From NCBI RefSeq assembly GCF_030247195.1, contig NW_026683366.1:1-64000 (forward strand): a DNA stretch of 64,000 nucleotides, given 5' to 3'. The DNA is from Topomyia yanbarensis. Lineage: Eukaryota > Arthropoda > Insecta > Diptera > Culicidae. The position numbers were made by a program, and so were the translations under genes. Position 1 is the first letter of the stretch, and each line of letters starts with the position of its first letter. Positions 4,300-61,459 of the stretch are shown here, piece after piece. Below the pieces are notes generated by a model. The model made no database searches and was not told where the DNA came from. It saw nothing but the letters and a program-made list of their open reading frames with translations.

Positions 4300-6915
4300 A
4301 TGTAGTAGGTATGTTTACATGTTTACATGTTTATGTTTACATGTTTATGTTTATGTTTATTACCTTCACCAACAAGCCCCTTGGCCCCAATGGTGGTTGC
4401 TTAAACTAATTACATTTTAAAATTGACAACATTTTCACTTTTATCGCATTCCGCGTCCTATTGAAGTCAAAGGCCGTCGCCACACTGTTAAAAATTCGTT
4501 GAAGTCCGGTAACAGCGCTCTGGCAACCATAGTTGGTTCTCCTGAACGGAACTCTCAGAAGGGAGTTATTGCGTAGAGCTCGAACGCGGACTTGAAGATC
4601 CAGACGTTCGAGGATTGTAGGGCAATCCACTCTGGCAGAGAGTAAGTCCGAGACGAACAGGGCTCGAGAGCAGTCCCTCCGAATGCTGAGTGTATCGAGG
4701 TGTATAAGCTGGCAACGGTTTTCATAGCTCGGCAGCTGAAATCTGTTTCGCCATGGGAGATGACGAAGGGCGAAGCGTATGAACCTGCGTTGGACAGCCT
4801 CGATTCTGTCAATCCCGTTCTGGTAGTACGGATTCCAAACAGCTGAACAATATTCTAACGTTGAGCGGACCAACGCGCAGTAAAGCGATTTAAGACAATA
4901 TACGTCCCTGAAGTTTTTCGCTATTCGGAAGATGAACCCAAGCTGTCGTGATGCCTTATCCACGATGTATGACGTATGTGGTTTGAATGTTAATGCCGAA
5001 TCCATGATGACTCCGAGATCTTTGATGTGAGAGTGTCTTGGAATGCTCGAGCCGAAGAAATGGTAGTTAAACTGAGTCGGTTGGCGTTTCCGCGTGAACG
5101 TAACGATTGAGCATTTGCTCGGGTTTAAAACCATTCTGTTTTGATCACACCACGTGCTAAAGCTGTCCAGATCCCTCTGAAGAAGCTCGGCATCGGTTTT
5201 ATCCCGTATTTGTTGAAAAATTTTCATGTCGTCGGCGAAAGAAAGGCGGGGTCCTTGTAATGTGAAATTGACGTCATTAAAGTAGAAGAGGAATATTACT
5301 GGACCGAGATGGCTTCCTTGTGGTATGCCGGATGTAGCGAAGAATGGTGCAGATAGACAGTCCTTAATGCTGATTTGGAGTTGCCTTCCATCGAGGTAGG
5401 AACGAAACCAGCGCAGAAGTTGTCCATGAATGCCGAGTTTGTCCAGCTTCGCTATTGCGATATCATGGTTGATTTTGTCGAAGGCCGCAGATAGATCCAT
5501 ATAAATAGCATCGGTTTGCAATCCGTCAGCGAATCCATCCATTACATATGTTGTGAACGAGAGCAGGTTTGTCGTTGTCGATCGTTTAGGCATGAAACCG
5601 TGTTGGTCATCTGCAATGTAGTGTTTGCAGTGAAAGAAAATAGGATCTAACACAACCAGCTCGAACAGTTTTGATACAGCACTTAAACACGAGATTCCCC
5701 GATAATTGTCAATGTTCGATTTGTTTCCTTTTTTATGAACTGGAAACATGTGCGCTGCTTTCCAGCAGGAAGGGAATGTACCAGTAGTGAGTGATAGCTC
5801 GAAGACTCGCCGAAGTGGTTCAAGAAGCCCGCTGATGCACTTTTTGACAAAAATCGAGGGAACACCATCTGGACCTGGGGAACAAGATGCTTTCAGTTTG
5901 GCATTTGCTGCAAGAATGGCAGCATTATCGACACAAATTCGGTTGATGGTTCGTCCTAGAGAAGGAGTTAAATTAGCGGCGGCAGCGACTTGTTGTGGTG
6001 GCAAGCGCTCGTTGGAAAAAACGCTTGAAAATTTGTCGGAGAACAGTTGGCAAATTTCCTTAGTGTCGGTGCCTAAAACTCCATTAAACGACATACAAGA
6101 TGGCAAACCGGATTCCTTTCGCTGCTCGTTAACATACTTCCAGAACGACTTGGGCTTGGATTTCAGTTGACGCTCGACGTTTCGCTGGTGTCTAAAAAAG
6201 GCGCGTCTGCTTTGTTGTTTGTATTCGTGGTTGAGTTGAAAGTAGTGATTTCGTAATGCAAGTGTCTTATGCTTCGAGAATTTTTTAAATGCAGCTCGTT
6301 TGGCAGATTTTAAACGTCTTAGGACGGTTGATTGCCAGGGAGGGTGTTCATCGGTACTAATTGTTCGTTTTGGTACATGGCGGTCGATAAGGTAGTTAAG
6401 AATACTAGAAAACGTCATCGCTGCTTCGTTCGCGTCGTCATTGTTAATATTTTCGTCCCAGTTTATATCCAACAGCGTGCTAACGATGCTGTCGTAGTCA
6501 GCGTTTTTAAAATCGTAGACGATAGAGCTTGAGACGTCTTCAAAATTCACTCCTAAGTTACCAGCGAATACAAGATGTAGTGGGGGATGATGACGCACCT
6601 GCTTGACTAAAGGAGTCGGTGCAGTGCAGCAGTACGGAGCGCAGTCCCGGGCACTTACAAAGCAGAGGTCCAATGTACGTCCATTCTCGTTGGTGACATT
6701 ATTAATTTGCCGAAGAGTTGCGCTGCTGTAGTTGTCCAAAATACAACTGGCATTGTTAATAAGCGCAGATTTTTCGATATCCAATTGTAGAAAACCATTA
6801 CTTGCTTGGCACCACGTCAAGCCAGGTAAGTTGAAGTCGCCCAGTATAACGATATCATCAGACGGGGCGGCGATCGAGGTGTTATGTGTTATCAAAAACA
6901 TCGCGAAGCATCAAG
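4300..6915 (-). mobile_element. CR1/L2-like non-LTR retrotransposon, 5'-truncated
   Basis: On the minus strand the element holds a truncated endonuclease, a complete RT and a 3' tail built of short ATAAACA/TGTAAACA repeats (about 4310-4362). A simple-repeat tail rather than poly(A) is usual for CR1/L2-type elements. The 5' boundary near 6915 abuts a different repeat. Two decayed relatives lie on the plus strand at 20480-21470 and 45056-45945. No target duplication was found. Confidence 0.75.
4406..6901 (-). CDS. Truncated endonuclease-reverse transcriptase (CR1/L2-like ORF2)
   Basis: An 831-codon frame without interruptions. The first ~100 residues are the C-terminal part of an APE-type endonuclease (ILGDFNLPGLTW near residue 20, then an HHPPLHL motif instead of the usual SDH). 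The N-terminal catalytic half is missing. RT motifs follow: PVHKKG...NYRGISCLS, MDLSAAFDKINH, SGIPQGSHLGP and SFADDMKIF, the last holding the catalytic aspartates. The C-terminal region (SYLDGRQ earlier, then RTNYG...RIFNS) resembles CR1/L2 clades, and no RNase H is present. The ATG at 6901 is only the first methionine after the truncation, not a proven start. Without a complete endonuclease the product is unlikely to support its own retrotransposition. Exact clade within the Jockey/CR1 group is uncertain. Confidence 0.8.
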   Translation of the reverse strand: MFLITHNTSIAAPSDDIVILGDFNLPGLTWCQASNGFLQLDIEKSALINNASCILDNYSSATLRQINNVTNENGRTLDLCFVSARDCAPYCCTAPTPLVKQVRHHPPLHLVFAGNLGVNFEDVSSSIVYDFKNADYDSIVSTLLDINWDENINNDDANEAAMTFSSILNYLIDRHVPKRTISTDEHPPWQSTVLRRLKSAKRAAFKKFSKHKTLALRNHYFQLNHEYKQQSRRAFFRHQRNVERQLKSKPKSFWKYVNEQRKESGLPSCMSFNGVLGTDTKEICQLFSDKFSSVFSNERLPPQQVAAAANLTPSLGRTINRICVDNAAILAANAKLKASCSPGPDGVPSIFVKKCISGLLEPLRRVFELSLTTGTFPSCWKAAHMFPVHKKGNKSNIDNYRGISCLSAVSKLFELVVLDPIFFHCKHYIADDQHGFMPKRSTTTNLLSFTTYVMDGFADGLQTDAIYMDLSAAFDKINHDIAIAKLDKLGIHGQLLRWFRSYLDGRQLQISIKDCLSAPFFATSGIPQGSHLGPVIFLFYFNDVNFTLQGPRLSFADDMKIFQQIRDKTDAELLQRDLDSFSTWCDQNRMVLNPSKCSIVTFTRKRQPTQFNYHFFGSSIPRHSHIKDLGVIMDSALTFKPHTSYIVDKASRQLGFIFRIAKNFRDVYCLKSLYCALVRSTLEYCSAVWNPYYQNGIDRIEAVQRRFIRFALRHLPWRNRFQLPSYENRCQLIHLDTLSIRRDCSRALFVSDLLSARVDCPTILERLDLQVRVRALRNNSLLRVPFRRTNYGCQSAVTGLQRIFNSVATAFDFNRTRNAIKVKMLSILKCN

Positions 6916-10111: not shown

Positions 10112-13100
10112 ATCAGGAATCAGAATATATTGGCTCAAATGGCACGTTCCCCGTACATAGTCGGGGATTTGTGCCTTGCCGTGTGTTTTCATCATTTCCT
10201 GAGCGGAAGGAAAGGACAAGGACGTGTGAGGAAGTAGAATTGGAAGGGTGGGAAAAATAACAGCACAAAACAAAAATAAACAACAGGTAAGTTAAACTCA
10301 CAAGTAGTTCAACTTGCCTGCGAATAAGCCTAAAGCTCTTTACCACATTGGATAAGAAACTTTAGTATGTCTCTGAGTTTCAGTCGACCAAACATGGTTT
10401 CGTCTATATAAGGACGGCTGAAGACTCGAAATCGCAATTGCGCTACCGCTGGACAGTTGCATATCAGATGATATGAGGTTCCGTAGTCGGATTCACAAAG
10501 ATCACATGAAAAAGACTCAGCGCGCTGAATAGTTGCCATGTGATAATTGAGTTTGCAGTGGCCGGTTAAAGCCCTGGTCAGCATGCCGCAGTGGAGCTTC
10601 GAAAAATGTAAGAGATTTTTCGAAACCACTGGGCATGGTTGTTCTAGAAACGCCTTTGTTTGGCGACACGTTTGTAGATTTCTCCAATAATTGCGGTGCT
10701 CGGACGAAGCCCAGGACCGTATTTTTTCCCGTATCCAACTTGTCGAAATTGGCAGCGCGGGCTCAGGACCAACGAAGTCAATCGCTGAACCTGCCCTGGC
10801 CAATTCGTCAGCCCATTCATTTCCAGTAATACCGCAATGTCCGGGCACCCAGACAAGGTAGATAGTGTTGACAATGCTTAGTTCTTCGATTTGGGTTCGG
10901 CACGCGATCACTAGCTTGGACCGGGATTTGTCTGAGCTAAGGGCCTTGATTGCAGCCTGACTATCGGAGCAGAAGTTTATAACTCTGCCGGACAAACTCA
11001 GTTGAAGGGCCGATTGCACCCCGCACATAATCGCAAAGATTTCTGCTTGGAATACAGTACAGTATCTACCTAGTGAGTGAGATTGTTCCAATCTCATTTC
11101 ACGACAGTAGACACCAGCACCGGCACGTCCCTCCATCAGAGAACCGTCAGTGTAACAGACTACTTGCGTTTGTTGTTGTCTTTCCATAAAGCCAGACAAC
11201 CACTCCTCTCGAGAGGGAATCTTCACATGGAATGTCCTGTAAGGAAAACTACAAGTGAGTGTAATATCGCTGGGAGCAAGAATATCTTCACCCCATGTAA
11301 CCATTTGTGACCACAATCGTGTATGAGTGGTAGCAAGATCAACATGATTACTGTTCCAAAGCCCAGTAACCTGCAGTCTGTATGCACATGATAGTGCTTC
11401 TTGTTTTAAGTGTATGTGTAATGGTTTGATATTTAAAAGTGCCTCAAGAGCAGCAGTCGGAGTCGTGGTGAAAGCACCAGTCAACGCCATGAGCGCCATT
11501 CTTTGCAGATGGTTTAGCTTTGACTGGACTGTCACCACCTCTCCCCTCTGCCACCACACAAGGCATCCGTATGACAGTATTGGACGTACAATTGTCGTGT
11601 AAATCCAATAGATGTATTTAGGTTTGAGACCCCAGGTCTTTCCAAAAGTTCGTCTGCACTGCCCGAAAGCCATGCACGCTTTCTTGACTCTGAACTCAAT
11701 GTGAGCAGACCAATTCAGTTTGGAATCCAATATGACTCCAACGTATTTGACTTGATCTGCACACAGTAGCTCAGAATCAAAGAACTGCAAGGGACGAACT
11801 CCGGTTGTTATTCGCTTCTTCGTGAAAAGAACCATTGAAGTTTTGCTTGGGTTAACTGATAGTTTAACCTGTCGACACCACTGTTCGACGGCTCTTAATG
11901 CCTGTTGCATTACGTCAAAGATTGTTCCGATGCAAAATCCAGTAATTAGTATTTGGTAATCGTCAGCAAACCCGTAGGTTGGAAATCCAAGCTCATTGAG
12001 TTTCTTCAACAAGCCGTCAGCTACTAAGTTCCATAACAAAGGTGACAGAACGCCGCCCTGAGGACAACCGCAAATACTCAACTTCCGTATCTCAGCCTGT
12101 CGCAGTGACGAGCAAAGTATGCGGTTACTAAGCATTGCGTTTATCCAACCTGAGATACATGCAGGTATCCCATGACCGCGCGTCGCTTCCAGAATGGACT
12201 GGAAGGACACATTGTCAAAAGCACCCTCAATATCTAGGAATACACCCAAGCTAGATTGCTTGAGCGAGAAGGCTTTCTCAATGTTGTAAACAACATCGTG
12301 AAGCAGAGTGATCGTGGATTTCCCACACTGATATGCATGTTGCATTTTGTGCAGTGGATATTCAACTAAACTAACGTTCCTGATGTGATGATCGATTATC
12401 CGTTCCAAAGCTTTCAGAAGAAAAGAACTTAAGCTGATAGGCCTAAAACTCTTGGCTTCTTCATAGCTTGAGCGCCCCCCTTTGGGAATAAATCTAACAG
12501 TTATTTCTCGCCATGCTTTCGGGATATACCCGGTAGCAAGACTGGAAAGCAAAATCTTTTTCAAGACATGTTTAAGAATATCAAATCCCTTTTGTAGTAG
12601 CACGGGAAGTATTCCATCTTTTCCGGGTGATTTGTATGGAGCAAAGCTGTCAACTGTCCACTTGACCGATTCAGTGGAGACCAATGTGCGTGCTAACGCC
12701 CACGAGTCCGAATCACCAGAATGAGATCTGTGAACATTGTTCAACTCAGGATCGATACAACCTGGAAAGTGTGTGTCGAAGAGACAATTAAGAACATCTT
12801 TTTCGTCCGTCACATAAACACCATCTCTGGTTTTTAAGGAGTTCATCTGAAAATCATTCGATTTGGAGAGAATTTTATTTAATCTGCTAGCCTCGTTCAG
12901 ACTAGAGACATTAGTGCATAGGCTTTGCCAGCCAGCCCGTTCTGCAGATCTAAGACATTTCTCATATGCACTACGAGCTGACCTGAAAGCCCTGGAGTCA
13001 TCACGCTGACGCCGGTTCCAAGCTCTTCTTATAACTTTCTTCATTCTTTCAAGCTCAGCCCTCAACCAAGGGGTTCCCCTAGTCGATTTAACAGTACGAA

Positions 13101-14593
13101 GTGGACAAGCTTCTTCGTAGGATGCTAATATGAATGAGTTTGTCGTATCCACGACGTCATCTAAGTCGTCTAGTTGACTAATTGTTGGAAAATATCCATG
13201 AAATTTAGTCGCCAAGTTTTCCAAAAAGAGGTCCCAGTTAGTAGATTTAGGATTACGATATGTCACCACATTGAAGGTGACATCAAAATGATCGAAAAAT
13301 ATATATTTATGATCGGATAGAGACGGTTCAGTTTCATTTGGAACCTGCCAATTTCCCAGTTCATGCAAAATTCTATCAGAGCAAAGTGTTATGTCTAACA
13401 CCTCCTCCCTACCAGACCTCGCAAAAGTTGGTCGGTTTCCCACATTCAGAATATGGAGATTTGTACTACTTATGTACTCCATCAGTTCAGAGCCTCTCAG
13501 ATTGATGTCCGAGCTGCCCCAAATGATGTGATGAGCATTCGCATCACTGCCGATAATGAGCGGAAGCCCATTTCTGCTACAATATGATACAACGCTTTTG
13601 AAATCATCAGAAGGAGATGATTCGTTATGCGGTAGGTATGCTGAACAATATATATATTTTTTGTCTACGTTTCCGACAGTCAGTGTAACTGTGACAACAC
13701 AGATATCGCGAGTTGTGAGCTCCGATATGAGACACGCGTCAATAGCCTTATTTGCAAGAATGCAAGCACGAGGCATTTCACGTGGGTTAGTCATGCCTGT
13801 CTTGTTGTAAGCAATGATGGCAGTGTTAAGTAACTTTCCAAAATAGAAGTTTCCTTTATGGAAATACGGTTCTTGAACCAATGCTATGGAAGCTTTACCT
13901 TCCTGCATTAGTCGAGATAAATTCATAGTTGCTGTACGTTTATGTTGGAGATTGATTTGTGCTATTCTAACCATTGTTGATTAAAGAACTGTACATTTCA
14001 TCTCCAACACAAATTGCACAACAACTAGAGGACACCAAGCGAGTTGGGATGTTAACGCATATAGCGAGCCATATCAGGTTTAAATGGGACATGATCATTT
14101 AATTCCCACGATTTGCGAAGAAAATAATGGTCCACTGTGTCAGAGATTCGCATAACACAGTAAGGGCAAAACCCAAAATGCTCCGTGCGCGACTGGCATA
14201 TTTTAGACCCTCCAGTCATTAAGTCCTCGGCACGGAACTACACCTTGACTTAGGGTCTCCTACTTTCAGTCGCCTCCTACGACATGGGAGCAGGACTCCA
14301 GTGGCTCAATTCTAGGCCGGATACCACACGGCCTCTGGGCAGGTTCATATGTACACATCGAAATTTGATAATCGAAACTCAACAAAACTTCACCGAACTA
14401 CAATCAGCTGAGAGTCTCAGCAAACCCCCAGCCAACAAAAATTCGGCAAAATTAAGTGGATCATCGGTGAAAAAAAAATCGGTGTGTAGAGTGAACGTTC
14501 CGCTGCGTAATGCAGCATACTGGGGAGTTAGCCCAACTCTTCCCAGGCTCCGTTCGCCATTGAGAATGTTTTAAACCCCCTAAACAATTTTAC
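10112..14593 (-). mobile_element. LOA-clade (Lian-like) non-LTR retrotransposon, apparently complete
   Basis: About 4.5 kb on the minus strand: a ~620-bp leader (13975-14593), one long ORF (10330-13974) and a ~220-bp 3' region. The 3' region ends in a short tandem tail of TGATTCC units (about 10112-10130) rather than poly(A). A direct repeat of 282 bp flanks it exactly. Only one ORF is seen; there is no gag-like ORF1 with zinc knuckles in the leader. Domain order APE-RT-RNase H plus a C-terminal zinc motif, and the lack of ORF1, recall Lian of Aedes aegypti. Confidence 0.8.
10330..13974 (-). CDS. LOA-clade polyprotein: endonuclease, reverse transcriptase, RNase H
   Basis: An intact 1214-codon ORF starting at an ATG, with the endonuclease beginning within the first residues (AQINLQHKRTAT). 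APE endonuclease: catalytic-type E35 in LVQEPYF, GSDANAHH 142-149, SDH 220-222. RT: about 440-760, with DIEGAFD 581-587, GCPQGGVLSP 636-645 and FADD 669-672. RNase H: about 938-1065, with CYTDGS (D943), FQAEI (E978), CSDSQAA (D1004) and NEWADELA (D1056), so all four acidic residues are present. The C-terminus carries CX2CX8HX4C (C1157, C1160, H1169, C1174). These activities together perform target-primed reverse transcription. The frame has no stop or shift, so the copy may be young. Clade assignment (LOA rather than R1 or Ingi) rests on RNase H plus RT motif style. Confidence 0.85.
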   Translation of the reverse strand: MVRIAQINLQHKRTATMNLSRLMQEGKASIALVQEPYFHKGNFYFGKLLNTAIIAYNKTGMTNPREMPRACILANKAIDACLISELTTRDICVVTVTLTVGNVDKKYIYCSAYLPHNESSPSDDFKSVVSYCSRNGLPLIIGSDANAHHIIWGSSDINLRGSELMEYISSTNLHILNVGNRPTFARSGREEVLDITLCSDRILHELGNWQVPNETEPSLSDHKYIFFDHFDVTFNVVTYRNPKSTNWDLFLENLATKFHGYFPTISQLDDLDDVVDTTNSFILASYEEACPLRTVKSTRGTPWLRAELERMKKVIRRAWNRRQRDDSRAFRSARSAYEKCLRSAERAGWQSLCTNVSSLNEASRLNKILSKSNDFQMNSLKTRDGVYVTDEKDVLNCLFDTHFPGCIDPELNNVHRSHSGDSDSWALARTLVSTESVKWTVDSFAPYKSPGKDGILPVLLQKGFDILKHVLKKILLSSLATGYIPKAWREITVRFIPKGGRSSYEEAKSFRPISLSSFLLKALERIIDHHIRNVSLVEYPLHKMQHAYQCGKSTITLLHDVVYNIEKAFSLKQSSLGVFLDIEGAFDNVSFQSILEATRGHGIPACISGWINAMLSNRILCSSLRQAEIRKLSICGCPQGGVLSPLLWNLVADGLLKKLNELGFPTYGFADDYQILITGFCIGTIFDVMQQALRAVEQWCRQVKLSVNPSKTSMVLFTKKRITTGVRPLQFFDSELLCADQVKYVGVILDSKLNWSAHIEFRVKKACMAFGQCRRTFGKTWGLKPKYIYWIYTTIVRPILSYGCLVWWQRGEVVTVQSKLNHLQRMALMALTGAFTTTPTAALEALLNIKPLHIHLKQEALSCAYRLQVTGLWNSNHVDLATTHTRLWSQMVTWGEDILAPSDITLTCSFPYRTFHVKIPSREEWLSGFMERQQQTQVVCYTDGSLMEGRAGAGVYCREMRLEQSHSLGRYCTVFQAEIFAIMCGVQSALQLSLSGRVINFCSDSQAAIKALSSDKSRSKLVIACRTQIEELSIVNTIYLVWVPGHCGITGNEWADELARAGSAIDFVGPEPALPISTSWIREKIRSWASSEHRNYWRNLQTCRQTKAFLEQPCPVVSKNLLHFSKLHCGMLTRALTGHCKLNYHMATIQRAESFSCDLCESDYGTSYHLICNCPAVAQLRFRVFSRPYIDETMFGRLKLRDILKFLIQCGKEL

Positions 14594-28327: not shown

Positions 28328-28403
28328 ATTGTATTGTGTTAAACTGGTTTTTCGATCCGCGCATAAAAAAAGTTACTACATGCCATTATTCGAAGCGGCA
28401 TCG

Positions 28404-28431
28404 CACAGTGGGGCCGGGCCGGCCAAAACCT
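28404..28431 (+). promoter_or_regulatory. 12-RSS-like transposon end
   Basis: Heptamer CACAGTG at 28404-28410 matches the canonical RSS heptamer exactly. The spacer is 12 bp (28411-28422, GGGCCGGGCCGG). The following CCAAAACCT (28423-28431) matches the canonical nonamer ACAAAAACC at 6 of 9 positions. If functional it would be the transposase binding and cleavage site. Confidence 0.5.
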
Positions 28432-30166
28432 CCAAAATTTATTGTCGATTTTCACACCTTTTATATTTTTTTCTAAATGTACATTACCTAAAGCTGTATT
28501 CGCCAAATTTTTGAGTCAATCGATTGAAAAATATAAGTGCTACATTTTTTTGAACCGTATAAGGTCTTGAAAATCTGCAAGAATTTGAGTGACAAAAAGG
28601 TTTTGTTCATTCTAATTCATCTCGCTTTAATAGGTACTACCACGTTAATTTAACAACACATATAGGCGTTTCTAATAGAAAATCATCTCAGGAATTCAAT
28701 GGAGTATTTAGATTTGAGAAATAATGAGTATTTAAAAAGTTACCAATAAAATCATTATAACTGTTGTTTAACGCGGACTTATTTACATTCACAGTGTCAT
28801 CTCTTTATCGGTAAAACCGTGTTGAAGGATCTCACCTAGTACAACTGACGTACAATTTTATCTAGTTTTCAAGAATCATAGTGCCATATTGCGCCGTTTT
28901 GCGCCGAAAGTTGATATTTGGACATTTGTAAAATTAGTTTTTTCATGGAGACGCATGGTATTTTTTGATTTCTTGAAGTTTTACATTATTATTCACCGGT
29001 GGATTTCTTTTCTGAACACTGCTTGTAAATTCAAGGTTTGGGGCGATTTCCTTGATACAAATATAAGTATGCCTTAACCGTCCTGCAAATATAACTCTTG
29101 TTTCTACATTTTCACAGTTATCTGCAGTATAGAAAAATTCAAATAAATACAAGCCAACGAGGCAAACTAACTGCAACTATTATTATATCTTTCTATAAAT
29201 CCTATCTCGTTGGTAGGTATTGGTCGTTAGCTTTACTGGTGACCGATGTAAAGTAAACACGTGAGTGTGAGAAGTGTTCTTTTTTACCCGATTTTTAGTT
29301 ATTGGCAAGTAATGCAACATTTATTTTCAAGTGCAAACTCCCTATTGAATCTATCACAATCAACAATCAAATTCAAAATCTCCCTCAATAATTCACTTCC
29401 AAATTGGTGAGAGTTTCATGCAAAAACGCTCAGGCCTCTATTTCAAAGCATAAACATACAGTGCAAAGTATAGGAAGGAATATGGTAAATGTTTTCGTAC
29501 GCAAAACCAAGTCAGTACCCACAAGGAGAGATATTCATATCATAATTGGAATTGAAAATCAATGGAAAAGTATTGTACGGCTTAGCTGTAGTATGCATCG
29601 TATGATCAACTGTGAATAGAGCATAGTAGAGCATGATTTGAGATCTTCATCAAAATCAAATAAACCTGTCATCTTTTAATAGCTTTGGCGATAACTATAA
29701 ATAAATAAACCAATATAAATTTAAGGCATTCTATCAAACACCTTAAGATATGCTAACTTTTATAACTATTCTAATCGCTTCTAATCGCATACGTTTATAA
29801 ATAAGTAAAAAAAGAGATATGAAGGGATTATTTTTTCTACGGTGGTATTCAGATTGGACTGAAGATCTACAAAAAAAATTATAAAATTACATCATTTTTT
29901 ATTCACCAGATTTCGATAAATTGGAACCACCTTATCTAACTCGATACTAAGGACTACCCAAGGAAATCAAAATGTTTCTGTTCACCTACGAAGTATCTGT
30001 TTTGATAAGTTAATAAAATTCACTTTCGCGAAATTTAAAAAAAATACTTTTAGAACCACCCTTGGCTATCTAATTTTCATTTTAGCGTCCTAATTTAATC
30101 AAAATCGAGTTCAGCGCACCAAAATTACCCTTAGATGATATTTTCAGACATTTTAAACTACTTTTG

Positions 30167-30205
30167 AGGTTTTGTCCAGCTTTTGTATGGAGTGGATCCA
30201 CTGTG
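30167..30205 (-). promoter_or_regulatory. 23-RSS-like transposon end
   Basis: Read on the minus strand: heptamer CACAGTG (30205-30199), a 23-bp spacer (30198-30176) and ACAAAACCT (30175-30167), which matches the canonical nonamer ACAAAAACC at 7 of 9 positions. The string CAAAACCTC is identical to that at the left end but lies 11 bp further from the heptamer. Confidence 0.5.
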
Positions 30206-30210
30206 CATCG

Positions 30211-37801: not shown

Positions 37802-39796
37802 CACAGTGGTCAAAATGAGCAATTTCATTACTTTAATTATTTTGCGGCTAAACCATAAGGTTTTGAGTTTTGGTGACTTAGGACAAGTTTTTGGAGTTAT
37901 TAAGACAGATTTTCAGAAGTAGACGACCATGTTCCAATATGAAATGTAAAGGCATTTTTGAAATGTAACTTTTTACGGGAAGGAGATAGACATTTGAGTC
38001 AAAGTTGCAGACAATATTATTTTTAGTAATTTAACTGAAGATAATAACTCTCTATCTACAGCCGTTTCGTTGTTATGAGAAGTTTTCCAATGAACCCCAT
38101 AAAAATCAGATTATTTAAAATAACTTTTGTCGTATTCATTTCTCTACAACAATGTTCTTCACAATTTTTTAGATAGTGTAAAAACCCATAACTTTGTTGA
38201 ATGTTTTAAGACAATCCGATGTTTATAGAAAGAGTTAGGCTGTTTCTTTGATTTAAAATGTTTTCTTAACAAGTTTTCTAAAAAAGTTCTCTACTACTAC
38301 TACTACAAAACCCTAAAGGAGTGGTTAGTATCTGTTAGTATCCAAGAATGTTATAAAAGAATGAAACGGCGAGCATTTGAGTTTTTTCTTCAGCGCTATC
38401 TGGCTTCATTATATTCAACCATTTTGTATGCATTGTATCCAAAATTATTTTAGTTATTATACTCACTTAATGAATTATTGTAAAAGTAATACCATAATTT
38501 AACAAAAAGTGCTCGTAGTTCCATTGGAAATTGTGTGAAGAAGTACTGTACAAAATTTTGAAATAATTGTTCCAGTAGATTCTGAATTATGATGCACACC
38601 TATTTTCTTAAAGTCTCCTCCACAGATTCACTCTCAATTATTTTCAATATTTTGCCACGAAAATTAGAGAAATTAAGTTCAAATTAATTTGCATTATTAT
38701 ATGGAAATTGACTAACGCTTTGTGTATCATCAAAATCTATTAAAAGCAATTTTCACCGAATGAACCTAATCTCTTACCCCCCTCGTCGATATTTACATAA
38801 ATATTTGTTTGGTATATTGTAAACTGTGTATAAGTGAAAAATTGAAATAAAACAACTTCTATATTCATTATTCATCGGATGTTTCTATTCTATTTGATCT
38901 ATGTATTACTGACAATAAATTTTATATTAGGCATTCCAGTATGCTTTCAGTTTTTCAAGCATTTTCATGTAGCCGTTTATTAGTTAGTGATTTTGTTTGT
39001 CGTCCAAACTGGTAAACGTAAGTTGCTGCAGTTTTCGAGTAAAACCGAGGAAGATCCAACTAAAAGTTTAAATAACAACGCAGACAACAGTTCATTGAAA
39101 GAGGATAAAATAACTAGATCATCAACATTCTATTGTAGACGTTTGCTACTTTCCCATTATTTAAGATTGAATAGAATATAAACGCCGTTAGAACTCAAAT
39201 ACTCGCTGTTTCATTTGTACGCAACATTCTTGGATACCAACGGATAATAACCATTCCTTCATAACTTTGTAGTAGATTGATAGTACTTTTTAAAAAATAC
39301 AATATCACCTGCATATTTTTTAGAAAACTGGCTACGAAATATGACATTTTTAATCAGAAAAACATCTCTAACTCTTTATATAAGCATTGAAGCGTCTTAA
39401 AATGTTCAACAAAGTTGTGGCGTTATACAACATCTAAAACATTGCAGAGAACATTGTTGTAGAGAAATGAATATGACAAAAGTTATTTTCAAAAAACAGA
39501 TTATTGAAGGGTGCTAACGAAAACTTCTCATAACAGCGAATCGGCTGTAGATAGAGAGTTAGTATCTTCAGTTAAATTACTTAAATAATATTCTCTACAA
39601 CTTTGCTGAAGACTCAAACCGCCTATCTCCTTTCAGTAAAAAGTTATATTTCAGAAATGCCTTTACACTTCATTTTGGAACATGACCGTCTACTTCAATA
39701 ACTCCAAAAACTTTTCTGAAATCACCAAAACTCAAAACCCTATAGTTTAGCCCCAAAATAATTAAAGGCATGAATTTGCTCATTTTGACCACTGTG
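37802..39796. mobile_element. Transib-like element with ~490-bp inverted arms
   Basis: Begins CACAGTGGTCAAAATGAGCA and ends with its reverse complement; CATCG flanks it on both sides (37797-37801, 39797-39801). The arms (about 37802-38290 and 39310-39796) are inverted copies over almost 500 bp, sharing TTTAATTATTTTG, TTTTGAGTTTTGGTGA, TAACTTTTTAC and CTCTCTATCTACAGCCG. The loop has only short frames. Terminal CACAGTGG plus 5-bp duplication links it to the elements at 28404 and 59899. No nonamer-like motif at 12 or 23 bp is evident. Non-autonomous. Confidence 0.75.
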
Positions 39797-46782: not shown

Positions 46783-49700
46783 TTAGACTTGTATATTGAT
46801 GGTTTTCACAAAGGTGTATATAAGGGACATATAGAGAACATCGCGGCTTGCCAGCACATCTCGAACCGGGACGTTGGTTGGTCTTCCTCGGGCCCGCAGG
46901 GTATCCATTAGCCGAGACCTAGCGGAACTGTACTCGGTGCACGCCCAGACAATGTGCTCGATGTCGTGATAGCCGTCGCCACAAGCGCAGATACCACCAT
47001 CCACGAGCCCAATACGCCGGAGATGTGCATCCAGCGTGTAATGGTTTGCCATGAGTCGGGACATCACACGAATGAAGTCACGACCCACATCCATCCCCTT
47101 GAACCAAGGTTTCGTCGATACCTTAGGGATTATCGAATGTAGCCACCTTCCCAGCTCTCCACTGCTCCACGAAGTTTGCCAACTTTCGAGGGTTCTCTGA
47201 TGAGTAATACTGAAAAATTCGCTGAAGCAAATTGGTCTTTCGTAAACGTCTCCTTCTAAGGCACCCACCTTAGCTAAGGAGTCTGCCTTCTCATTGCCCG
47301 GAATGGAGCAATGAGAAGGGACCCATACCAAGGTAATCTGGAAAGAGTTGTCAGATAAAGCACTCAGTAGCTCCCGTATTTTCCCCAAAAAATACGAGGA
47401 GTGCTTGCCTTGTTTCATCGAGCGAATAGCGTCAATGGAACTGAGGCTATCCGAAACGATGAAGTAATGGTCTGCGGGTAATGTTTCAATGACTCCAAGG
47501 GTATACTGAATGGCAGCTAGTTCTGCGGCGTAAACTGAAGCAGGGTCACTGAGTTTGTAGGAGGCGGTGAACTTTTGATTGAAAATACCGAAGCCAGTGG
47601 ATCCTTCGAGGTTTGATCCGTCAGTATAAAACATCTTAGAACAGTCGACTTCTCGGAATTTATTATAAAAAATGTTTGGAACCACTTGTGGGCGTATGTG
47701 GTCCGGAATTCCACTAATCTCGTCTTTCATGGATGTGTCGAAGAAAACAGTAGATTCAGAAGTATTTATGAAATGCACACGGTTGGGATTGTAAGAAGAA
47801 GGGTTAATATTCTGCGCCATGTAGTCAAAGTACAGGGACATGAAACGGGTCTGAGAATTGAGCTCAACAAGCCTTTCGAAATTTTCAATCACGACCGGGT
47901 TCAAGATATCGCATCGAATGAGCAATCGATATGAGAGTTCCCAAAATCGATTTTTCAACGGGAGAACGCCCGACAGCACTTCGAGACTCATCGTATGGGT
48001 CGACTGCATGCACCCTAAGGCGATACGCAAACAACGATACTGAATTCTTTCGAGTTTGATGAAATGTATGTTCGCGGCGGAGCGAAAGCAGAAGCATCCG
48101 TATTCCATTACCGACAGTATCGTTGTTTGATACAACCTAATTAGGTCTCCTGGGTGGGCACCCCACCATGTTCCGGTTATTGTACGAAGAAAGTTGATCC
48201 TTTGTTGGCATTTCTGTTTCAGATACCGAATATGGCATCCCCAAGTACCTTTCGAGTCGAACCAGACCCCTAGATATTTTACTGTGAAGACCTGAGCGAT
48301 AGTTTGACCCATTAATAGAAGCTGTAGTTGTGCTGGTTCACGCTTCCTTGAAAATACAACTAGCTCAGTTTTCTCCGTGGAGAATTCGATACCCAGCTTA
48401 ATAGCCCAAGCAGACAAATTGTCCAGGGTATTCTGTAATGGTCCTTGTAGATCGACAGCTTTGGGTCCCGTAACAGACACCACGCCATCGTCTGCAAGTT
48501 GCCTTAACGTGCAGGAATTGTCAAGACATTCATCAATGTCGTTGACATAGAAATTGTATAAAAGGGGGCTTAGACATGAGCCCTGGGGAAGGCCCATGTA
48601 GCTAAATCGTGATGTCGATAAGTCACCATGCGAAAAATGCATGTGCTTTTCCGACAACAGGTTTAGTAAAAAGTTGTTTAAAGTCGCTGAAAGACCATGC
48701 TGGTGCAGCTTCTCTGAAAGAATGTTGATCGAAACTGAATCAAAAGCCCCCTTAATATCTAGGAACACTGATGCCATCTGCTCTTTGCTAGCATAGGCCA
48801 TTTGAATTTCAGTTGAGAGCAACGCAAGACAATCGTTCGTCCCTTTGCCTTTGCGAAAGCCAAATTGTGTATCTGACAGTAAGCCATTTGCTTCGACCCA
48901 ATTGTCGAGGCGGGATAGGATCATTTTCTCGAACAACTTCCGGATACAGGATAACATTGCGATCGGACGGTACGAATTGTGGTCGGAGGCTGGTTTTCCT
49001 GGTTTTTGGATGGCGATGACCTTCACTTGTCTCCAATCGAGTGGGACAATGTTAGCCTCGAGAAACTTATTAAATAAGTTCAACAAGCGTCTCTTGGCAG
49101 AGTCAGGCAGATTCTTCAACAAGTTGAATTTGATTCTGTCTGGCCCCGGAGCTTTATTGCTACACGACAAGAGAGCAAGTGAGAACTCCACCATCGAAAA
49201 AGGTGTTTCGTTCGCGCTATCGTGAGGAGACGCGGCGCGGTAAATCTTCTGTGCCGGGGCGGAATCCGGACAAACCTTCTTGGCGAAATCGAATATCCAA
49301 CGGTTTGAATATTCCACGCTCTCATTAGTACTGTTTCGATTTCGCATACGTCGGGCTGTTCCCCAAAGAGTGCTCATCGATGTTTCTCTCGTTAATCCGT
49401 CGACGAACCGGCGCCAATAATCGCGTTTTTTGGCTTTCATCAAACTCTTCATTCGCTTGTCTAACGTCGCGTACTGTCGAAAACTGGCGGGTAACCCGTC
49501 GTTCCGGAAGGTCTTAAACGCGGCGGCCTTCTCTGCGTACACGTCTGAGCACTCTTTATCCCACCAGGGATTGGGAGAACGTTTTTGTATGTTCGCGCCG
49601 GGTACTGGCCTAGTCTGAGCTTGATTCGCGCTGTCGAGAATCAAGCCAGCCAAAAAGCTGTACTCTTCCTCCGGAGGAAGTTCTTGGGTAGATTCGATGT

Positions 49701-50469
49701 TGTCGGATATCGCGGCAGCATAGCTCTTCCAATCGATATTTCGTGTGAGGTCATACGAAATATTGATTGATTTCAATGGCCTTGAACCGTTATTGATTGA
49801 GACTACAATCGGCAGATGGTCGCTGCCGTGGGGATCAGGAATTACCTTCCACGTGCAATTTAACCGCAGCGATGTTGAGCAAAGGGACAAGTCTAAGGCG
49901 CTCGGGCGCGCTGGAGGAGCAGGAATCCGTGTCATTTCACCCGTGTTTAAAATTGTCAAATTGAAGTTATCGCAAAGATCCTGAATTAAGGAAGACCGGT
50001 TATCATCATAGAGGCAACCCCATGCTGTACCGTGAGAGTTAAAGTCTCCTAAAACTAGTCGCGGTGCAGGCAGGGATTCTAAGATGTCTTGTAGCCGTCG
50101 GTGCCCAACCGCGGTGTTGGGGGGAATATATATGGAAGCTATGCAAAGGCTTTTGCCTTTGGTTGTTACTTGACAAGCGACAACTTCAATACCTGTTATC
50201 GAGGGAAGGTTAATTCTGTAGAAGGAATAGCACTTTTTGATCCCCAAAAGCACTCCTCCATAGGGGGTGTCTCGATCCAGGCGAATAATATTAAAGTCGT
50301 GGAAGTTGAGTTCTATGTCGGAAGTTAACCAAGTTTCACATAATGCAAATGCATCGCAACTCAAATTATTTATTAAAATTTTGAAGGAATCGATTTTCGG
50401 GATGATACTTCTGCAATTCCACTGTAGAACAGTGATCAAATCCGTGACCTCGTTCGATGAGTTAGCCAT
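46783..50469 (-). CDS. I-clade ORF2: endonuclease, reverse transcriptase, RNase H
   Basis: 1228 codons from the ATG at 50469 (MANSSNEV); a frame extension upstream of it has no ATG. APE endonuclease: LQWNCRS near 15-21, E45 in LCETWL, GDFNSHG 141-147, SDH 216-218. RT: about 430-720, with FLDIKGAFDS near 570-577, GLPQGSCLSP 626-635 and LADD 658-661, where leucine stands in the usual F/Y position but both aspartates are kept. RNase H: about 945-1072, with FYTDGS (D950), AAELAA (E983), VSDSLSS (D1007) and NEKADSLA (D1063). C-terminal zinc motif CXCX8HX4C (C1161, C1163, H1172, C1177). It carries out target-primed integration of the element RNA. The ATG overlaps the ORF1 stop, so translation by reinitiation or coupling is likely. 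Confidence 0.88.
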   Translation of the reverse strand: MANSSNEVTDLITVLQWNCRSIIPKIDSFKILINNLSCDAFALCETWLTSDIELNFHDFNIIRLDRDTPYGGVLLGIKKCYSFYRINLPSITGIEVVACQVTTKGKSLCIASIYIPPNTAVGHRRLQDILESLPAPRLVLGDFNSHGTAWGCLYDDNRSSLIQDLCDNFNLTILNTGEMTRIPAPPARPSALDLSLCSTSLRLNCTWKVIPDPHGSDHLPIVVSINNGSRPLKSINISYDLTRNIDWKSYAAAISDNIESTQELPPEEEYSFLAGLILDSANQAQTRPVPGANIQKRSPNPWWDKECSDVYAEKAAAFKTFRNDGLPASFRQYATLDKRMKSLMKAKKRDYWRRFVDGLTRETSMSTLWGTARRMRNRNSTNESVEYSNRWIFDFAKKVCPDSAPAQKIYRAASPHDSANETPFSMVEFSLALLSCSNKAPGPDRIKFNLLKNLPDSAKRRLLNLFNKFLEANIVPLDWRQVKVIAIQKPGKPASDHNSYRPIAMLSCIRKLFEKMILSRLDNWVEANGLLSDTQFGFRKGKGTNDCLALLSTEIQMAYASKEQMASVFLDIKGAFDSVSINILSEKLHQHGLSATLNNFLLNLLSEKHMHFSHGDLSTSRFSYMGLPQGSCLSPLLYNFYVNDIDECLDNSCTLRQLADDGVVSVTGPKAVDLQGPLQNTLDNLSAWAIKLGIEFSTEKTELVVFSRKREPAQLQLLLMGQTIAQVFTVKYLGVWFDSKGTWGCHIRYLKQKCQQRINFLRTITGTWWGAHPGDLIRLYQTTILSVMEYGCFCFRSAANIHFIKLERIQYRCLRIALGCMQSTHTMSLEVLSGVLPLKNRFWELSYRLLIRCDILNPVVIENFERLVELNSQTRFMSLYFDYMAQNINPSSYNPNRVHFINTSESTVFFDTSMKDEISGIPDHIRPQVVPNIFYNKFREVDCSKMFYTDGSNLEGSTGFGIFNQKFTASYKLSDPASVYAAELAAIQYTLGVIETLPADHYFIVSDSLSSIDAIRSMKQGKHSSYFLGKIRELLSALSDNSFQITLVWVPSHCSIPGNEKADSLAKVGALEGDVYERPICFSEFFSITHQRTLESWQTSWSSGELGRWLHSIIPKVSTKPWFKGMDVGRDFIRVMSRLMANHYTLDAHLRRIGLVDGGICACGDGYHDIEHIVWACTEYSSARSRLMDTLRARGRPTNVPVRDVLASRDVLYMSLIYTFVKTINIQV
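50462..50469 (-). other. ORF1/ORF2 overlap ATGGCTAA
   Basis: On the minus strand ATGGCTAA holds the ORF2 start (ATG, 50469-50467) and the ORF1 stop (TAA, 50464-50462) in different frames, an 8-base overlap. Such overlaps allow termination-dependent reinitiation in some non-LTR elements; here that is inferred. Confidence 0.85.
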
Positions 50470-51781
50470 CGAAGGATACAATCGCTGAGAGGAGGGGCCA
50501 TTTAGCAGTCAACTGCTTCAAAAATGTTCTCACTGTAGGGAGAAAAGCTAACATAAGACTTTTAATAGGATCAGTAATATTGAAAGTTTTTATTATCCAG
50601 TCCACTATGTCCGAGAGTTTTATAATTCCAGTGCTGTGATTACTCTCGAACTGAAACAAAGGAACACTTGGGATTTTTGATGTTCCTGGAAGTGCTGGGA
50701 ACTCCTTCTCTGAGCTTAATCCTCCGAGACCAGGAGCTAATTGCTTCGGTTTGGTTGCAACACTTCCAATAGATGTGACTTTCGGAGCCCCCTCAAGGGA
50801 CACCTTCTGGCCTTTACAAGGAACTTTACGAGAGGAAGTGTTCCTCCTCTTCCTATAAATTCTAGGCACCCTAGTAGATGTTCCCTCTTGTGGGTTACCA
50901 GCCTCGCCCTCGTCAGGAGGCAAGTGAGTATAGATGTTTGCTGAGGATGGTGGCGTAGCATTCTTTAACATTTCTGCGAAAGAATGTTTGGATCGTCCCG
51001 CAAGGGAACGTTTCAGTTTATCCCCGCGTAGTTTGTACGCGGGACATGCCGAGATATCATGCAGACTCTCCGCACAGTAAGGACACTTTTCGGCTTGCTT
51101 ACTGCACGAATCATCTAGATGATTCTCCCCGCATTTTCCACAGCGGGCCTTATTGCTACAATGGGTGGCTGTGTGACCCAGTTGTTTACACTTTGTGCAA
51201 TTCATGACCCGCGGCACAAACAGACGCACAGGCAGACGAACCTTGTGCAAGAGGACGAAATTTGGCAAAGCGGTACCAGCGAAGGTCACCCGATAAGAGT
51301 TTGATTGGGGGTACGTTTTTGAACCATCCCCCGCAACTACTACTGAGTGCAAACGTTTGCACTCAAGTATTTTAACTGGCTGAAGTAAGCGGTCTCTGAA
51401 TCGGCCAACCCCGTACTTCAGCAGATCCTCGCACGTCAAACTCTCATCGGTTACGACGCCTTCGGATTGTACTCTTACAGCCGGAATATACACGTTATAA
51501 TCCCGCGTAAAGTGCTCACAGCAAGCAATATCGTTTGCCTGCTTTGAGTTGGCTAGCAACACCCTTATCTTGTCCGAGCGGACCTTTGAAATTTCGGTCA
51601 CAGCCGAGAACCGTTCCGTCAGGTCTCTAGAAATCTGAAGAAGATTCAGTGATTTAGTCTTGGGCCGAAAGAAGACCACAAATGGACCAGTTGAGAGTTC
51701 TGGATAGCATTTGGGCCGGGGGGGAGCCTTAGAAGTTGAACCCGATTCAACTTCCATTTGACCATCCGGAGAGGGAACCAT
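50462..51781 (-). CDS. I-clade ORF1, gag-like nucleic-acid-binding protein
   Basis: 439 codons from the ATG at 51781 (MVPSPDGQMEVESG). The frame is open a few codons further upstream without an ATG, so this start is chosen. Three retroviral-type zinc knuckles sit mid-protein: CTKCKQLGHTATHC (CX2CX4HX4C, residues 195-208), CGKCGENHLDDSC (CX2CX3HX4C, 214-226) and CPYCAESLHDISAC (CX2CX4HX4C, 233-246). The N-terminal part (VVFFRPKTKSLNLLQISRDL...) resembles the RNA-binding-like region of mosquito and fly gag proteins. The protein is expected to coat element RNA and accompany ORF2 into the nucleus. No stops or shifts are seen. Confidence 0.85.
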   Translation of the reverse strand: MVPSPDGQMEVESGSTSKAPPRPKCYPELSTGPFVVFFRPKTKSLNLLQISRDLTERFSAVTEISKVRSDKIRVLLANSKQANDIACCEHFTRDYNVYIPAVRVQSEGVVTDESLTCEDLLKYGVGRFRDRLLQPVKILECKRLHSVVVAGDGSKTYPQSNSYRVTFAGTALPNFVLLHKVRLPVRLFVPRVMNCTKCKQLGHTATHCSNKARCGKCGENHLDDSCSKQAEKCPYCAESLHDISACPAYKLRGDKLKRSLAGRSKHSFAEMLKNATPPSSANIYTHLPPDEGEAGNPQEGTSTRVPRIYRKRRNTSSRKVPCKGQKVSLEGAPKVTSIGSVATKPKQLAPGLGGLSSEKEFPALPGTSKIPSVPLFQFESNHSTGIIKLSDIVDWIIKTFNITDPIKSLMLAFLPTVRTFLKQLTAKWPLLSAIVSFDG

Positions 51782-52066
51782 AGAAAACGTCAACGCACGG
51801 GGTCAGCGCCCGCGCAGACGGAAGAAAGCAATAAATGTGTTACAAAAGACAAAAACCACTTAGCTTTAAACTGGTGTCCAACGACGAACCGATCCAGCTT
51901 ATACAGCTGGCTATTGTTTAATCCTCACACGCGAACAAAAGACTGAGGACCGAACCGAACTGGCAAAATAACCTTGAATGCGGATTAAAACTATTCTTTA
52001 TCGCCTCACACAGCACTACGGACTAGAAAAAACAACCTCTGTCTCGATGGAGAGCTCGAAAACGAA
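51782..52066 (-). promoter_or_regulatory. I-clade leader (5' UTR, presumed internal promoter)
   Basis: 285 bp between the right target duplication and the ORF1 ATG. On the minus strand it begins TTCGTTTTCGAGCTCTCCAT. Elements of this clade use an internal, TATA-less promoter at the extreme 5' end; that is family knowledge, not shown here. Confidence 0.55.
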
Positions 52067-59898: not shown

Positions 59899-61459
59899 CA
59901 CAGTGGTCGGAAACGCCAAAAACGTGAACTTAATTCACTAGAGGCCAAAACATCGAAAATATTCACAGGGTGTCTTTGGAGGAATTGTTCGTATAAATAT
60001 TTCCCACAATCTGATAACAATTGAAATTAGGCATGGCTTACTATGATCGAACTAAAAAAATTAACTTTTTATACTGGCGAGATAGAAAGTTGGTGTGTTC
60101 GACAAAGTTTTAGGAATGCTCATAGCGAACAATTTTGTTGAAGAACTTGAGCTTGTAGGAGTAAAGGTTATCGATTTATAAGACGTTTTCTATGACAACC
60201 CCCTTAAATCTAGTTTTTTAATATAACTTTTTTCATTGTAACTTTTCGTGCAAACTATGTATAACACAAATGTGTAGGTATCAAAACTACATAATATTGT
60301 CGAAGACTGTATGTAAAAATACTCATTTATTTCAAAGTTATTGAAGATTTTTACATTTTTTTACACCAACTTCAACTACATATAAGAAAGAAAGGTGCAA
60401 ACCAAAATGCATGAACAGGCACTTTTTTAACTCTATAAACTATGCACAATAAATCTAAGAAGGTTTGGTGCGTGGCACTCTAGAACCCTATGAATAGGGT
60501 AAGCTAACTTTATCATGTTTTTAGATTTTTTCCATACAAAAATGAGCAAAAAAATTTTTTTTCCATTTTTTCCGTAAAATTTAATAAATAAAGGTATGAC
60601 ATTCTTTTGTAAGCATTAAATTCATTATGACATGTCTATTTGAGTATATATTAGTTTGGAATCTGCAATGATATTAAAAACTTTACATTTTTGTTCCCAC
60701 GTTTATAAAATCTGAAATATTCAGGTATAAGAGAAAATAATACTTGTAATTGAACATTGAACCAAGAATTTCAAAAATTGGGGCAAAAAAACTTAAACAT
60801 TTTTTTTTGCTGATTTTTGTATGGAAAAAGTCAAAAACCATGATAAAGTAATCTAAAGCTATTCATAGGGTTTTAGAGTGCCACGCACCAAACCTTCTTA
60901 GCTTTATTGTGCATAGTTTAGAGAGTTAAAAAAGTGCCTGTTCGTGAATTTTGGTTTGCACCTTTCTTTCTTATACGTAATTGAAGTTGGTGTAAAAAAA
61001 ACGTAAAAATCTTCAATAACTTTGAAATAAATGAGTATTTTTACATACAGTCTTCGACAATATTATGTAGTTTTGATACCTACACATTTGTGTTATACAT
61101 AGTTTGCACGAAAAGTCACAATGAAAAAAGTTATATTAAGAAAACTAGATTTAAGGGGGTTGTCATAGAAAACGTCTTATAAATCGATAACCTTTACTCC
61201 TACAAGGTCAAGTTCTTCAACAAAATTGTTCGCTATGAGCATTCCTAAAACTTTGTCGAACACACCAACTTTCTATCTCGCCAGTATAAAAAGTTAATTT
61301 TTTTAGTTCGATCATAGTAAGTCATGCCTAATTTCAATTGTTATCAGATTGTGGGGAATATTTATACGAACAATTCCTCCAAAGACACCCTGTGAATGTA
61401 TACGATGGTTTGGCCTCTAGTGAATTAAGTTCACGTTTTTGGCGTTTCCGACCACTGTG
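59899..61459. mobile_element. Transib-like fold-back element with ~640-bp arms
   Basis: Begins CACAGTGGTCGGAAACGCCA and ends with its reverse complement; GATTG flanks both sides (59894-59898, 61460-61464). Arms 59899-60540 and 60830-61459 are inverted copies for over 600 bp, sharing AATTCACTAGAGGCC, GTGTCTTTGGAGGAATTGTT, AAGTTGGTGTGTTCGACAAA and GTGCGTGGCACTCTA, around a ~290-bp loop. Terminal CACAGTGGTC is identical to the 37802 element, but the body is different. A CCAAAAACG string follows the heptamer after 10 bp at both ends. No transposase frame. Confidence 0.75.

What the first reader, a model, noticed from the sequence alone, without database searches (positions are those of the whole stretch)
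28404..30205. Insect transposon whose two ends look like a 12-RSS and a 23-RSS
Seen: both ends start with CACAGTG, the exact V(D)J recombination heptamer; a 5-bp CATCG duplication flanks the element. The left end carries CCAAAACCT after a 12-bp spacer and the right end ACAAAACCT after a 23-bp spacer. Beyond the first 8 bp, CAAAACCTC is the only clear shared block, displaced by 11 bp, one helical turn. Known: Transib elements give 5-bp duplications, have RSS-like termini and encode a RAG1-related transposase; the 12/23 rule governs RAG synapsis. Inference: an asymmetric 12/23-type pair may exist in a mosquito Transib lineage, implying paired-end discrimination outside vertebrates. Nonamer matches are only 6/9 and 7/9, and one copy cannot exclude chance.
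Basis: partly seen in the sequence, partly recalled or inferred. Interest (0 to 1): 0.9.

Follow-up and report, generated by a model that had tools for sequence, protein, structure and literature searches.

The report
Mosquito-like Transib transposon with RSS-like ends
This is a non-coding mobile element of the Transib family, the relatives of the enzyme that assembles antibody genes, and its two ends carry a shared motif at different distances from the tip, much as antibody-gene signals do; that kind of asymmetry has been reported in mosquitoes before, and whether it controls end pairing is untested.

Summary
In detail: a 1,802-bp element with CACAGTG ends, a CATCG duplication, and a CAAAACCTC block 12 bp (left) and 23 bp (right) from the heptamer. 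The genome holds 342 matching right and 260 left ends, so it is a transposon family. Terminus CACAGTGG and 5-bp CNNNG duplications match seven two-ended Transib elements read in the same genome; one frame matches HzTransib at E=1e-116. Yet a diverged relative nested in another copy repeats the layout: block at exactly 12 on one end and 23 on the other, the right block 18/18 identical against 31/55 around it. The seven transposase-bearing elements are symmetric. No partner with this element's ends was found in the part searched. Asymmetric 12/23 Transib ends in Anopheles and Drosophila are already in print (PMC8355894, citing 2005 work). Verdict: Transib membership well supported, conserved asymmetric spacing likely, a 12/23 pairing rule unproven; new member of a known kind.

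The parts
28399..28403 (.). left target-site duplication CATCG
   Evidence: read directly; repeated at 30206-30210
28404..30205 (.). 1,802-bp non-autonomous Transib-type element; no ORF of 100 aa or more listed inside it
   Evidence: no significant match to the L079 Transib frame
28404..28410 (+). left heptamer CACAGTG
28411..28422 (+). left 12-bp GC-rich spacer GGGCCGGGCCGG
28423..28431 (+). left inner motif CCAAAACCT (6/9 to the nonamer ACAAAAACC) at spacing 12
   Evidence: the diverged relative has ACAAAACCT at the same spacing
30199..30205 (-). right heptamer CACAGTG
30167..30175 (-). right motif ACAAAACCT at spacing 23 (7/9)
   Evidence: conserved 18/18 with its flanks in the diverged relative
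30206..30210 (.). right target-site duplication CATCG
37802..39796 (.). second non-autonomous Transib-type element, symmetric long inverted repeats, CATCG duplication; its ends match the transposase-bearing family of L089 at 39 and 41 of the first 45 bases
59899..61459 (.). third CACAGTGG-ended element, symmetric long inverted repeats, GATTG duplication; subterminal similarity to Transib loci L079 and L081

Best explanation
A non-autonomous Transib family mobilised in trans by a RAG1-like Transib transposase. Each end is bipartite: a CACAGTGG tip that is cut, and an inner block GG(A/Y)CAAAACCTC that is probably a transposase contact. The inner block lies 12 bp from the heptamer on the left and one helical turn further, 23 bp, on the right, where a second, weaker copy also remains at 12 bp. 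The right end probably arose by an 11-bp insertion or tandem duplication of the block. Shown: family, ends, target duplications, Transib transposase genes in the genome, spacing kept in one diverged relative. Inferred: that the block is a protein site, that spacing matters, and which transposase acts.
For: 342 right ends and 260 left ends within 3 mismatches, reversed controls 0. 26 of 37 aligned copies have duplications matching at 4 or 5 of 5 bases (18 of 37 exact); the left duplication begins with C in 26 of 26 and ends with G in 23 of 26. The same genome has Transib elements ending CACAGTGG with CGGCG or CATTG duplications; the 718-aa frame of L079 matches HzTransib (6pqn) at E=1.3e-116 and passes the Pfam RAG1 cut-off. 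The relative N100, nested in L100, has the block at exactly 12 and 23; right block 18/18 identical against 31/55 around it (Fisher p=0.0002), left 11/12 against 37/60 (p=0.04); the block limits were drawn after seeing the sequences.
Against: N100 is a single copy and its ends are homologous to these, so the layout may be inherited rather than selected. TCCATACAAA in the right spacer, which contains the core of the 12-register motif, is also conserved 10/10. No partner with these ends was found (11 of 66 weak PF12940 places and 6 long left-right pairs examined). Within the family the left motif is changed in 12 of 234 cells, no less than positions 40-58 (25 of 494), and the right 23-bp motif in 5 of 234 against 8 of 494.
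Confidence: 0.6

Rival explanations
1. Both ends work in the same register (12/12): the transposase reads an A-rich motif about 12 bp inside the heptamer at each end, and the 23-bp copy on the right is a bystander duplication with no role.
For: Right ACAAAAGCT at 12 scores 7/9, as good as the 23 copy, and is as well conserved in 26 copies (4 of 234 cells changed against 5 of 234). Six other Transib-type ends of this genome have A at positions 20-22 in 17 of 18 cells, reached by 0 of 20,000 random offsets (positions chosen after looking, families partly related; the two ends of the 37802 element, not counted, read AAT and AAA, and the L094 end, not counted, reads GAA). The seven two-ended transposase-bearing elements are symmetric.
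Against: Between the two related families the 23-register block is 18/18 identical while the 12-register motif is 5/9. The left block with its flanking GG matches the right block at 23 better than the one at 12 (read by eye).
Confidence: 0.28
2. The inner blocks and their spacing have no function; the transposase needs little beyond the CACAGTGG tip, and the resemblance to RSSs is chance plus descent.
For: Most Transibs, including Hztransib, are reported to have symmetric ends, the latter with little or no similarity to the nonamer (PMC8289069, passages). Nonamer scores of the other Transib ends vary widely in height and position. A T081-like end in L094 has the ACAAAAA motif about 7 bp nearer the tip (counted by eye).
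Against: Excess identity of the block between diverged families; A-run at position 20 in other families.
Confidence: 0.1
3. The element belongs to another superfamily and its Transib-like tip is convergent.
For: No partner found; beyond the first 8 bp the ends resemble other Transib ends only weakly (2 of 10 comparisons exceed all 60 simple shuffles, z 2.9 and 3.7).
Against: Identical 8-bp terminus, same kind of 5-bp CNNNG duplications, and a TAGGGTGGTTCTAA motif about 130-145 bp inside the right end that also occurs near the end of T080 (sequences).
Confidence: 0.02

Closest known systems
Asymmetric 12/23 Transibs: Transib5 of Drosophila melanogaster, Transib2, N1, N2 and N3 of Anopheles gambiae (as listed in PMC8355894; legend and one section read)
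   Same: Transib ends with heptamer and nonamer-like motifs at about 12 and 23 bp
   Different: This family is from another genome; its right end holds motifs at both 12 and 23. Letter-level comparison was not possible: the 2005 paper is not held
Hztransib of Helicoverpa zea (PDB 6pqn; PMC1852546 and PMC8289069, passages read)
   Same: Transib with 5-bp duplications; its transposase is homologous to those in this genome
   Different: Symmetric ends with little or no similarity to the nonamer, according to PMC8289069
ProtoRAG of amphioxus (PMC8289069, passages read)
   Same: Asymmetric bipartite ends with spacers of set length
   Different: 27/31-bp spacers, two RAG-like proteins, and function shown by experiment
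Vertebrate 12-RSS and 23-RSS
   Same: Exact heptamer; nonamer-like motif at 12 and 23
   Different: Nonamer matches 6/9 and 7/9; the right end is compatible with both registers; no pairing rule shown

Membership tests
Transib superfamily | 5-bp target-site duplication | tested here: met
   26 of 37 copies with duplications matching at 4-5 of 5 bases, 18 of 37 exact; C first in 26/26, G last in 23/26
Transib superfamily | CAC-initial RSS-heptamer-like terminus shared with transposase-bearing Transibs of the same genome | tested here: met
   CACAGTGG here and at both ends of T079, T080, T081, L088, L089, L091, L092
Transib superfamily | RAG1-related transposase in the element or in a partner with the same ends | tested here: inconclusive
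   none in the element; no partner in 6 long left-right pairs or at 11 of 66 PF12940 places; a genome-wide protein search did not complete
12-RSS / 23-RSS pair | heptamer CACAGTG at both ends | tested here: met
12-RSS / 23-RSS pair | nonamer at 12 on one end and at 23, not 12, on the other | tested here: not met
   the right end scores 7/9 at both 12 and 23
12-RSS / 23-RSS pair | spacing conserved in related elements | tested here: met
   one relative only, one copy: N100, exactly 12 and 23
12-RSS / 23-RSS pair | recombination prefers 12 with 23 over like pairs | not testable with these tools
   needs a cleavage or excision assay

The most novel reading that the evidence does not exclude
A mosquito-type Transib lineage in which end pairing truly depends on a one-turn spacer difference (12 with 23), conserved across at least two families in a genome whose other Transibs read here are symmetric: a RAG2-free precursor or parallel of the 12/23 rule, with right ends that keep both registers and so record how a 23-type signal can arise from a 12-type one.
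Probability: 0.2. Interest if true: 0.85.

Novelty: new member of a known kind. Interest (0 to 1): 0.45.

Why it matters
How the 12/23 rule arose is open; PMC8355894 says that 12/23 asymmetry outside V(D)J recombination is known only in some Transibs. Here symmetric and asymmetric Transib families sit in one genome, and a right end carrying both a 12- and a 23-register motif suggests a stepwise origin by an 11-bp duplication. It gives defined substrates for a direct test, since a purified Transib transposase (Hztransib) has been studied in vitro (PMC6941560, passages).

Tried and rejected
Within-family conservation as a test of function: set aside, because copies drift from one source. In the 26 copies with matching duplications the interior is changed in 3.6% of cells, the first 50 bases in 2.9% (left) and 2.0% (right), and the motifs do not stand out from their neighbours. 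My own first counter-reading, that both ends are simply 12/12, was weakened when the nested relative N100 turned up; it is kept as the main rival. Longer left-right pairs as possible autonomous copies: all 6 fetched are this same family with insertions and no transposase match. PF12940 as a probe gave nothing at E<=0.001 and 66 weak places at E<=10, of which 11 were fetched. tRNA and Rfam scans of the window gave nothing. Never answered because the genome search stayed busy: all Transib transposases by protein query (13 calls from 70 to 97), copies of N100 by DNA query (11 calls from 117 to 140), and a count of heptamer-12-ACAAAACCTC (6 calls from 108 to 119).

Full report
What is there. The element at 28404-30205 is as described: CATCG duplications, CACAGTG at both tips, CCAAAACCT after 12 bp on the left and ACAAAACCT after 23 bp on the right. 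No ORF of 100 aa or more is listed inside it, and the L079 Transib frame has no significant match in it.

It is a transposon family. A DNA search scored 40 of 1,572 candidates and listed 46 matches, of which 28 span bases 1-1802 at 89-100% identity. Exact-pattern scans found 342 right ends and 260 left ends within 3 mismatches, with reversed-pattern controls of 0. All 30 right-end places fetched, of 342, carry this family's interior. I fetched 39 further places listed (one of them twice). L026 was dropped as the shorter cut of the place held as L048, and L009, L012 and L029 because their flanks duplicate another row, which leaves 37 rows with the window copy. Of these, 26 have duplications agreeing at 4 or 5 of 5 bases (18 exactly); the other 11 have a truncated or shifted end or more mismatches. 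The left duplications read C-N-N-N-G: C first in 26 of 26, G last in 23 of 26.

It is Transib. A Pfam RAG1 (PF12940) scan of the genome gave no match at E<=0.001 and 66 weak places at E<=10. I fetched 11 of these 66. L079 holds a 718-aa frame matching the HzTransib chain 6pqn at E=1.3e-116, and the L079 and L080 frames pass the Pfam RAG1 cut-off. A protein search found 549 relatives of the L079 frame at E<=0.001, the named ones among the 120 listed being insects. Seven of the 11 loci show both ends (L079, L080 and L081, extended as T079, T080 and T081, then L088, L089, L091, L092), and all begin CACAGTGG. L093 shows the same inverted repeat as L089 with one tip not matching, and L090, L094 and L095 show one end each. 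Duplications are CGGCG, CATTG, CATTG and CATTG for T079, T080, T081 and L088, one mismatch for L091 and L092, and 3 of 5 bases for L089. The seven fall into four families, with inverted repeats of about 610-920 bp that are 95-99.7% identical, hence symmetric. Whether any of them is still active is not known; the L079 frame reads Asn at the second catalytic position, and L080 and L081 are split into several frames. The window's own element at 37802 has ends close to the L089 family (39 and 41 of 45 bases), and the one at 59899 resembles the subterminal sequence of L079 and L081.

The right end is CACAGTG-GATCCACTCCAT-ACAAAAGCT-GG-ACAAAACCT: a motif at 12 bp as well as at 23, each 7/9 to the nonamer. 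In 26 copies the two are equally conserved, 4 and 5 changed cells of 234. Six other Transib-type ends of this genome have A at positions 20-22 in 17 of 18 cells. The positions were picked after looking, the families are partly related, and the ends left out (37802: AAT and AAA; L094: GAA) fit a little less well. So a 12-bp register at both ends is a serious alternative.

What revives the asymmetry. Pairs of left and right ends lying unusually far apart were picked by eye from the partial listings, and six were fetched. None has a transposase match; each is this family with insertions. In L100 the insertion is an 867-bp relative, N100, with duplications CACCG/CAACG (4 of 5). Its ends are CACAGTG-ATCACCTTCCATACAAATCTCGG-ACAAAACCTCAAAAGT and CACAGTG-TCGCCTAGCCGG-ACAAAACCTCAAAATT: the block at exactly 23 and exactly 12. 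BLAST found similarity to this family only at its ends. Against this family the right block (positions 29-46) is 18/18 identical, positions 8-28 are 11/21 and 47-80 are 20/34 (Fisher p=0.0002); the left block with its GG is 11/12 against 37/60 elsewhere (p=0.04). The block limits were drawn after seeing the sequences. Ten of the 11 spacer identities are TCCATACAAA (10/10), which includes the core of the 12-register motif, so the right end in both families keeps both registers.

Mechanism. Most likely a Transib transposase cuts at CACAGTGG, hairpins the flank and excises the element (reported for Hztransib in PMC6941560, passages), while a second domain contacts the inner A-rich block. One end offers that block at 12 bp and the other at 23 and, weakly, 12. 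Whether pairing prefers unlike ends is not shown. The 11-bp repeat (ACAAAAGCTGG / ACAAAACCTCA) suggests that the right end arose by a one-turn duplication.

Relation to the literature. PMC8355894 (legend and section read) lists Transib5 of Drosophila and Transib2, N1, N2 and N3 of Anopheles gambiae as having 12/23-asymmetric ends, after Kapitonov and Jurka 2005, which is not held here. PMC8289069 (passages) says most Transib families, Hztransib included, are symmetric, and that ProtoRAG uses 27/31-bp spacers and prefers asymmetric pairs. PMC7204232 (passages) expects invertebrate RAG-like elements to be relatively insensitive to asymmetry. PMC4411706 (passages) notes that autonomous Transibs are typically present in one or a few copies, which may be why no partner was met. 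So the kind is known; this is a further member, with two added facts: spacing kept in a diverged relative, and coexistence with symmetric families in one genome. The full-text searches made were seen as listings, and no listed title or abstract start describes this family; that is not a proof of absence.

Limits. One relative, one copy of it; no partner with these ends; the protein and DNA searches that would have settled family spread did not complete.

Noticed in passing
window 37802-39796: Non-autonomous Transib-type element with long symmetric inverted repeats and CATCG duplication; the L089/L091/L092/L093/L095 family is its likely coding partner (ends 39 and 41 of 45 bases alike).
   Followed up: partly
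window 59899-61459: CACAGTGG-ended element with long symmetric inverted repeats and GATTG duplication, similar to subterminal parts of L079 and L081.
   Followed up: partly
L081 with L086/L087 (T081) and L088: Transib family whose both ends carry ACAAAAACA, 8/9 to the RSS nonamer, at exactly 23 bp: a 23/23 layout. A related end in L094 has the motif about 7 bp nearer the tip.
   Followed up: partly
L079:805-2958 (-): Open 718-aa Transib frame in which the residue aligned to the second catalytic Asp of HzTransib reads Asn (alignment; catalytic residue numbers from PMC6941560, chain offset worked out by me).
   Followed up: no
window right subterminal region; T080, T081: TAGGGTGG-type motif about 130-145 bp inside the tip in this element's right end and in two transposase-bearing Transibs (sequences printed).
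   Followed up: no
window 912, 14133, 27027: Single CACAGTGG sites followed by palindromic or AT-rich sequence, possibly ends of further truncated elements.
   Followed up: no
G000 C145 and C157: The stretch of 4.8 kb around the window's copy is 99.9% identical on C157, flanks included (L001 against L002), so the two contigs are probably alternative haplotypes or a duplication.
   Followed up: partly
window 10330-13974 (-), 46783-51793 (-), 4406-6901 (-): Long ORFs that look like non-LTR retrotransposons (reverse-transcriptase-like motifs; label recalled, not tested).
   Followed up: no
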